From Paludibacter sp. (lineage in GTDB: Bacteria > Bacteroidota > Bacteroidia > Bacteroidales > Paludibacteraceae), in assembly GCA_010365115.1 (NCBI GenBank), contig JAAFGX010000005.1, forward strand, positions 29,301 to 93,300: DNA of 64,000 nt, read 5' to 3'. Made by a program: the position numbers and the translations under genes. The stretch's first letter is position 1, and every line of letters begins with the position of its first letter. Shown piece after piece: positions 39,674 through 40,471 of the stretch. The notes beneath the pieces are model-generated. The model was given only the letters and a program-made list of their open reading frames with translations. It did no database searches and was not told the DNA's origin.

Positions 39674-40015
39674 TTAGAAATGCAACATTGCTCCTACTGA
39701 AACAGCTTGAATAATAGGACCTTTTTGTGATTGGAACATACTTAATGGAGAGTGTTTTGCGTATAAACCCCACGAATTATATCCAATTTGAGCTATATAG
39801 TCGAGTGACACTGGAGCAATATTAAGTCCCTTAGATTCCACAGTATTTATATTAACACCATTCGAGTCTTTGTACTTCATGCGAGTGGAAGCAAAAGTAT
39901 TGACACTTCCCACTACACCACCAGACATAAAAAACCTATGATTTCTGCCAAAGTAAGGTTGCCATTCGAGCATTAAAGGAACAGTAAGCCCAAACGTACG
40001 TAAACGCGTCTTCGA
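39674..40015 (-). pseudogene. C-terminal remnant of an outer-membrane beta-barrel (porin-family-like) protein
   Basis: Reading frame KTRLRTFGLTVPLMLEWQPYFGRNHRFFMSGGVVGSVNTFAST... continues upstream of the first Met, is N-terminally truncated by a stop, and ends in a typical beta-barrel terminal ...AVSVGAMLHF. Confidence 0.6.
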
Positions 40016-40105
40016 AGTCTTTTTTCGATTCTATGTAAATTAAAGTTTTTTTTCCGGTAGTTGCACTTCGTTAAATATTATAAGTCGATAGAGGTCGGAT
40101 TTGCG

Positions 40106-40316
40106 GTAACTACTCAGCACCCCTCTATTTTGTCATCTGAATATATAGTATGCTGATAATCAAATAATAGTATCTGGTCAATACAAGCGCTTGTGAGCTT
40201 AGAAAAAGCAGGAATTATGCTCTTTTTGAGATTTTGTTCTATTTCTATCATTTATTGAATAAGCAATCTACTGTATGTCAAAATATTATAAAACAACAGG
40301 GATGCTGAGTAGTTAC
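40106..40316. mobile_element. MITE, IS66-family-like (211 bp, TIR GTAACTACTCAGCA, 8 bp TSD)
   Basis: GTAACTACTCAGCACCCCT at left, AGGGATGCTGAGTAGTTAC at right; flanked by direct repeat GATTTGCG at 40098-40105 and 40317-40324. No transposase ORF inside. Confidence 0.9.
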
Positions 40317-40471
40317 GATTTGCGAGGCAAATATAAAAAAAATAGAAATTGGTTTACCGTTTGCCACAACCTGTTTCACCTTTTTGGCACCAAGTTTATC
40401 TTTGGAAGTACGGAATATAACATCTAAAATAAAAAAAATACTAATAGATTGATTTCAAGCACAATAAAATC

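What the first reader, a model, noticed from the sequence alone, without database searches (positions are those of the whole stretch)
40098..40324. 211 bp MITE with 8 bp target-site duplication, IS66-like ends
Termini GTAACTACTCAGCA(C)CCCT / AGGG(A)TGCTGAGTAGTTAC are near-perfect inverted repeats and the element is flanked by a perfect 8 bp direct repeat GATTTGCG. 5'-GTAA ends and 8 bp duplications are the IS66-family hallmark. The element has no transposase, so it is a non-autonomous derivative. The intact TSD suggests relatively recent insertion.
Basis: partly seen in the sequence, partly recalled or inferred. Interest (0 to 1): 0.6.

Follow-up and report, generated by a model that had tools for sequence, protein, structure and literature searches.

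The report
Single IS66-type MITE in Paludibacter pseudogene
A 211-base piece of DNA with no genes of its own was copied into a broken gene of a Paludibacter-like bacterium, almost certainly by the enzyme of a known kind of jumping element (IS66 family, ISBst12 group); it is a good clean example of an ordinary phenomenon.

Summary
A 211-bp element (40106-40316) has 14-bp perfect (26 bp at 85%) terminal inverted repeats and is flanked by perfect 8-bp duplications GATTTGCG. The IS66 reading is supported and can be narrowed to the single-ORF ISBst12 group. In other genomes of the same genus (named relatives are Paludibacter MAGs), intact 1558-1559-bp IS66 elements with one 469-aa transposase have the same ends (19 bp identical) and 8-bp duplications. 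Published ISDge4 (ISBst12 group, seen transposing, 8-bp repeat) has nearly the same ends. The own genome has a decayed copy on C17 and, split over an assembly break, both ends of another copy flanked by the same 8-bp ATAATTTT. About 35 MITEs (161-240 bp) were collected, mostly from the same genus: 20 have an exact 8-bp duplication, against a re-pairing expectation of 0.6. Relatives carry the empty site: the element splits a DUF6108 gene remnant and the flanks join with one 8-bp copy. The element is single-copy in its own genome, its interior matches no MITE found, and the parents share only ~19 bp, so a simple internal-deletion origin is not shown. Ordinary: a new member of a known kind.

The parts
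40098..40105 (.). left copy of 8-bp target-site duplication GATTTGCG
   Evidence: direct repeat 8/8; single copy at the aligned empty site in relatives
40106..40316 (+). 211-bp non-autonomous IS66 (ISBst12-group) element, MITE-like, no ORF of at least 60 aa
40106..40131 (+). left terminal inverted repeat GTAACTACTCAGCACCCCT...; outer 19 bp identical to the L072 IS66 ends
40291..40316 (-). right terminal inverted repeat (GTAACTACTCAGCATCCCT... read inward)
   Evidence: 47 bp of this end 81% identical to MITEs of same-genus genomes
40317..40324 (.). right copy of target-site duplication GATTTGCG
40339..40405 (-). 5'-ward remnant of the split DUF6108-type gene (matches the relative's residues 82-103; truncated upstream)
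40009..40105 (-). 3'-ward remnant of the same DUF6108-type gene (residues ~108-141)
39674..40013 (-). C-terminal third of an outer-membrane beta-barrel gene fused by deletion to the DUF6108 remnant (pseudogene; ORF 39674-39973)
   Evidence: 78% identity over 113 aa to L120; intact two-gene order in L120

Best explanation
It is a MITE-type passenger of an ISBst12-group (single-ORF) IS66 insertion sequence. The transposase of such an element, acting in trans, recognised the GTAACTACTCAGCA ends and inserted the 211-bp DNA by staggered cleavage of the target, leaving an 8-bp duplication. The target was a DUF6108-type gene (intact or already decaying) just upstream of an outer-membrane-protein gene. 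Shown: ends, TSD, empty site in relatives, parents with the same ends and TSD length, MITEs with the same ends, and parent remnants in the same genome. Inferred: mobilisation in trans, and that the unassembled copy between contigs C78 and C6 is or was the active source.
For: Ends and TSD. IS66 parents: L072 1381-2938 (1558 bp, TSD CTTTTAAT) and L065 845-2403 (1559 bp, TSD AAATATTA), each with one 469-aa transposase, called IS66 by Pfam PF03050 (7e-41; 2e-40) and NCBIfam NF033517 (264 and 259 bits, cut-off 180). First 19 bp of the MITE identical to both L072 ends. Own genome: decayed copy on C17 with this left end. A left end at the end of C78 and a right end at the end of C6 have the same 8-bp flank ATAATTTT. 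MITEs with these ends: 20 of 35 exact 8-bp TSD against 0.58 expected, none at 7 or 9 bp. Empty site: relatives align through the junction with one 8-bp copy, CGCAAGTC in L120 against CGCAAATC here; the gene is split between residues 103 and 108. Literature: ISDge4, ISBst12 group of IS66, single ORF, TIRs GTGACTACTCAGCA / GTAACTGCTCAGCA, 8-bp repeat, transposition observed (PMC12898284).
Against: Single copy in its own genome, so strictly not a repeat family there. Beyond ~19 bp neither end is significantly like the parents' ends (51 to 479 of 500 shuffles score as high), so it is not a plain internal deletion of any sampled parent. No complete autonomous copy is present in the 207-contig assembly; the C78/C6 copy is inferred. 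Transposition in trans was not tested.
Confidence: 0.93

Rival explanations
1. The element belongs to another 8-bp-TSD family (for example IS1595; an IS1595-like transposase lies next to the decayed IS66 on C17), and the IS66 likeness is superficial.
For: 8-bp TSDs are not unique to IS66 (general knowledge); an IS1595-like ORF occurs at L010 2434-2793 (assignment by eye, not tested).
Against: Nearly every locus with the single-ORF IS66 transposase carries this end; the three-gene-type IS66 loci do not, except L067, where a 1-mismatch match lies far from the transposase. L065 and L072 are complete elements with these ends on both sides.
Confidence: 0.02
2. It is a deletion derivative of canonical tnpABC IS66, such as the C124 copy in the same genome.
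For: The own genome has a three-ORF IS66 locus on C124.
Against: No GTAACTACTCAGCA end within 3 mismatches near that locus, and none at 1 mismatch in its homologues apart from one stray.
Confidence: 0.02
3. The 8-bp repeats and inverted repeats are a chance or non-transposon structure, for example a stem-loop RNA.
For: The sequence folds better than shuffles (z -3.1).
Against: The fold is explained by the TIRs; no Rfam match. Relatives have the empty site with a single 8-bp copy, and elements with the same ends show TSDs at 8 bp only.
Confidence: 0.01

Closest known systems
ISBst12 group of the IS66 family (for example ISDge4 of Deinococcus geothermalis; PMC12898284)
   Same: Terminal GTRACTRCTCAGCA ends, 8-bp direct repeats; the parents here have the single transposase ORF and DUF6444 / zf-IS66 / DDE_Tnp_IS66 domains.
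   Different: The element itself is 211 bp, has no transposase, and shares only ~19 bp of end sequence with the parents sampled.
Bacterial MITEs (for example MITEPsy1 of Pseudomonas syringae, possibly IS5-derived, 4-bp TSD, transposition observed; PMC3189936)
   Same: Short, coding-free, TIRs match a full-length IS, precise TSD, can interrupt genes.
   Different: IS66/ISBst12 ends and 8-bp TSD; single copy in the host genome.
161-240-bp ISBst12-end MITEs of Paludibacter-like genomes
   Same: Same ends, 8-bp TSD; in several copies the right 47 bp is ~81% identical.
   Different: The main 23-member group has an interior of up to three strong hairpins (GATTTTCAGTTCGAC..., CCCCCAGTTGCGCTTCGC..., CCCC..GGGG); the window element lacks these.

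Membership tests
IS66 family, ISBst12 group (as a non-autonomous derivative) | Terminal inverted repeats starting 5'-GTAA, specifically GTAACTACTCAGCA | tested here: met
   published ISDge4 ends
IS66 family, ISBst12 group (as a non-autonomous derivative) | 8-bp target-site duplication | tested here: met
   empty site
IS66 family, ISBst12 group (as a non-autonomous derivative) | Full-length IS66 parent with the same ends in the genome or genus | tested here: met
   L065, L072; C17 remnant and C78/C6 ends in the own genome
IS66 family, ISBst12 group (as a non-autonomous derivative) | Sequence homology to the parent beyond the TIR (internal-deletion origin) | tested here: not met
   bases 20-60 no better than shuffles against 9 left and 12 right ends; not a required feature of MITEs
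IS66 family, ISBst12 group (as a non-autonomous derivative) | Mobilised in trans by the IS66 transposase | not testable with these tools
   needs a transposition assay
MITE | Short (under ~600 bp), no coding capacity, TIRs, TSD | tested here: met
MITE | Multiple copies in the genome | tested here: not met
   one copy in the own genome; multi-copy MITEs with these ends in G246 and others, but with different interiors

The most novel reading that the evidence does not exclude
ISBst12-group transposases in Paludibacter-like bacteria move several unrelated interiors that share only the outer ~19 bp, so new MITEs arise by capture of foreign DNA between two ends rather than by internal deletion; the window element would be one such capture.
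Probability: 0.25. Interest if true: 0.35.

Novelty: new member of a known kind. Interest (0 to 1): 0.2.

Why it matters
It confirms a base-exact reading of a small mobile element from raw sequence and names its likely mover. ISBst12-group IS66 elements have few studied examples (three papers mention the group in the library searched), and the Paludibacter-like genomes show a large set of MITEs with their ends, a ready source for defining the minimal ends. The element itself is ordinary.

Tried and rejected
Sister copies in the own genome: none. Matches on plasmids and in viral contigs: none. Rfam match: none for the element and none above gathering score inside three of the related MITE loci. 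Extended homology between MITE interior and IS66 ends: not significant. The canonical IS66 on C124 as parent: disfavoured. First MITE pattern used a gap of 150-180 bases and so missed the window's own element (gap 183); this explains the zero for G000. Literature searches for a described IS66/ISBst12 MITE in Bacteroidota found none in the held library.

Full report
Observation. The element is exactly as described. GATTTGCG stands at 40098-40105 and 40317-40324; between them lie 211 bp whose ends are inverted repeats, 14 bp perfect and 26 bp at 85%. The end sequence is not a common motif: 0.18 expected in the window at 2 mismatches, and four exact occurrences in the 4.79-Mb own genome against none for the reversed control. 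No ORF of 60 aa or more lies inside. The single-strand fold (z -3.1) is explained by the terminal repeats.

Copies. The own genome has this 211-bp sequence once. Among 358 genomes of the family, only the ends match, chiefly in the same genus. Genome G246 of the same genus carries many MITEs with the same 14-bp ends. A scan of named genomes with the pattern end-N(170-200)-end gave 18 stretches, mostly Paludibacter and other Bacteroidales MAGs, with single cases in Opitutales, Prevotella and a gammaproteobacterium. That the window's genus is Paludibacter-like is inferred from these names; the own genome bears none. From all loci, 35 MITE copies of 161-240 bp with both flanks could be examined (the window's own included): 20 have an exact 8-bp direct repeat and 25 have one at up to 1 mismatch, while re-pairing flanks at random gives 0.58 and 1.3; no exact repeat occurs at 5, 6, 7, 9 or more bases. 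By similarity they fall into one group of 23 and several small groups or singletons; the window element is a singleton, sharing up to 47 bp at 81% with the right end of others.

Parent. A Pfam IS66 search of the genus found two complete elements with these ends: L072 (1558 bp, TSD CTTTTAAT) and L065 (1559 bp, TSD AAATATTA). Each has one 469-aa ORF with DUF6444, zf-IS66 and DDE_Tnp_IS66 matches (the first two below the curated cut-off in L065), and passes NCBIfam's IS66 cut-off. The MITE's outer 19 bp equals both L072 ends. Loci with this single-ORF transposase carry the end; loci with the other (C124-like) IS66 transposase do not, bar one stray match. A published ISBst12-group element, ISDge4, has ends GTGACTACTCAGCA / GTAACTGCTCAGCA, one ORF and an 8-bp repeat, and was seen to transpose (PMC12898284). 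So the likely mover is an ISBst12-group IS66 element.

Parent in the own genome. Contig C17 holds a decayed copy. Contig C78 ends 88 bases into a left end and contig C6 ends ~94 bases into a right end that encodes the transposase C-terminus; the flank of C78 (ATAATTTT) equals the reverse complement of the flank of C6. I infer that both are sides of one insertion whose body was not assembled.

Insertion site. Joining the flanks with a single GATTTGCG gives a sequence that aligns with relatives across the junction (70% over 180 bp with L120; its 8 bases are CGCAAGTC against CGCAAATC, minus strand). The split gene is DUF6108-type (25.8 bits, cut-off 23.9): residues ~82-103 on one side of the element and ~108-141 on the other. 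Downstream, a deletion fuses this remnant to the last ~110 residues of an outer-membrane beta-barrel gene that is intact in relatives. The order of insertion and decay cannot be told from one genome.

Limits. Bases 20-60 of either end are no more like the sampled parents than shuffles, so the element is not a simple internal deletion of any of them. Either it derives from an unsampled or old relative, or only the ends are shared. Movement in trans is inferred. The claim of recency rests on the intact TSD alone.

Verdict.

Noticed in passing
L013 1325-1547, L032 1501-1721, L046 1501-1723, L014 1501-1723, L099 4789-5014: The main Paludibacter MITE group has an interior of up to three strong hairpins (GATTTTCAGTTCGAC..GTCGAACTGAAAATC; CCCCCAGTTGCGCTTCGCTTACTGGGGG; CCCC..GGGG), conserved across species; no Rfam family at gathering score.
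   Followed up: partly
window 39674-40013 and 40009-40405 (minus strand): DUF6108-type gene and outer-membrane beta-barrel gene reduced to a fused pseudogene in this genome while relatives (L117-L121) keep both in the same order.
   Followed up: yes
L033 102-262 and 1501-1664, L041 1501-1664: A separate 161-164-bp MITE group with the same ends and a CCCCCAACCCCCTAAAGGGGG stem near one end; two copies lie ~1.4 kb apart in one genome.
   Followed up: no
L087 1031-1234, L094 198-395: MITE-sized elements with identical 14-bp ends and near-exact or exact 8-bp TSD in an Opitutales MAG and in Gammaproteobacteria bacterium AwWohl, far from Bacteroidota.
   Followed up: no
L010 2434-2793 (own genome contig C17): A transposase-like ORF that looks like IS1595 by eye lies just past the truncated 3' side of the decayed ISBst12-type IS66.
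   Followed up: no
G251 contigs: 57 exact copies of the IS66 end, many of them within ~60 bases of contig ends, so this genome probably holds a few dozen near-identical IS copies that broke the assembly.
   Followed up: no
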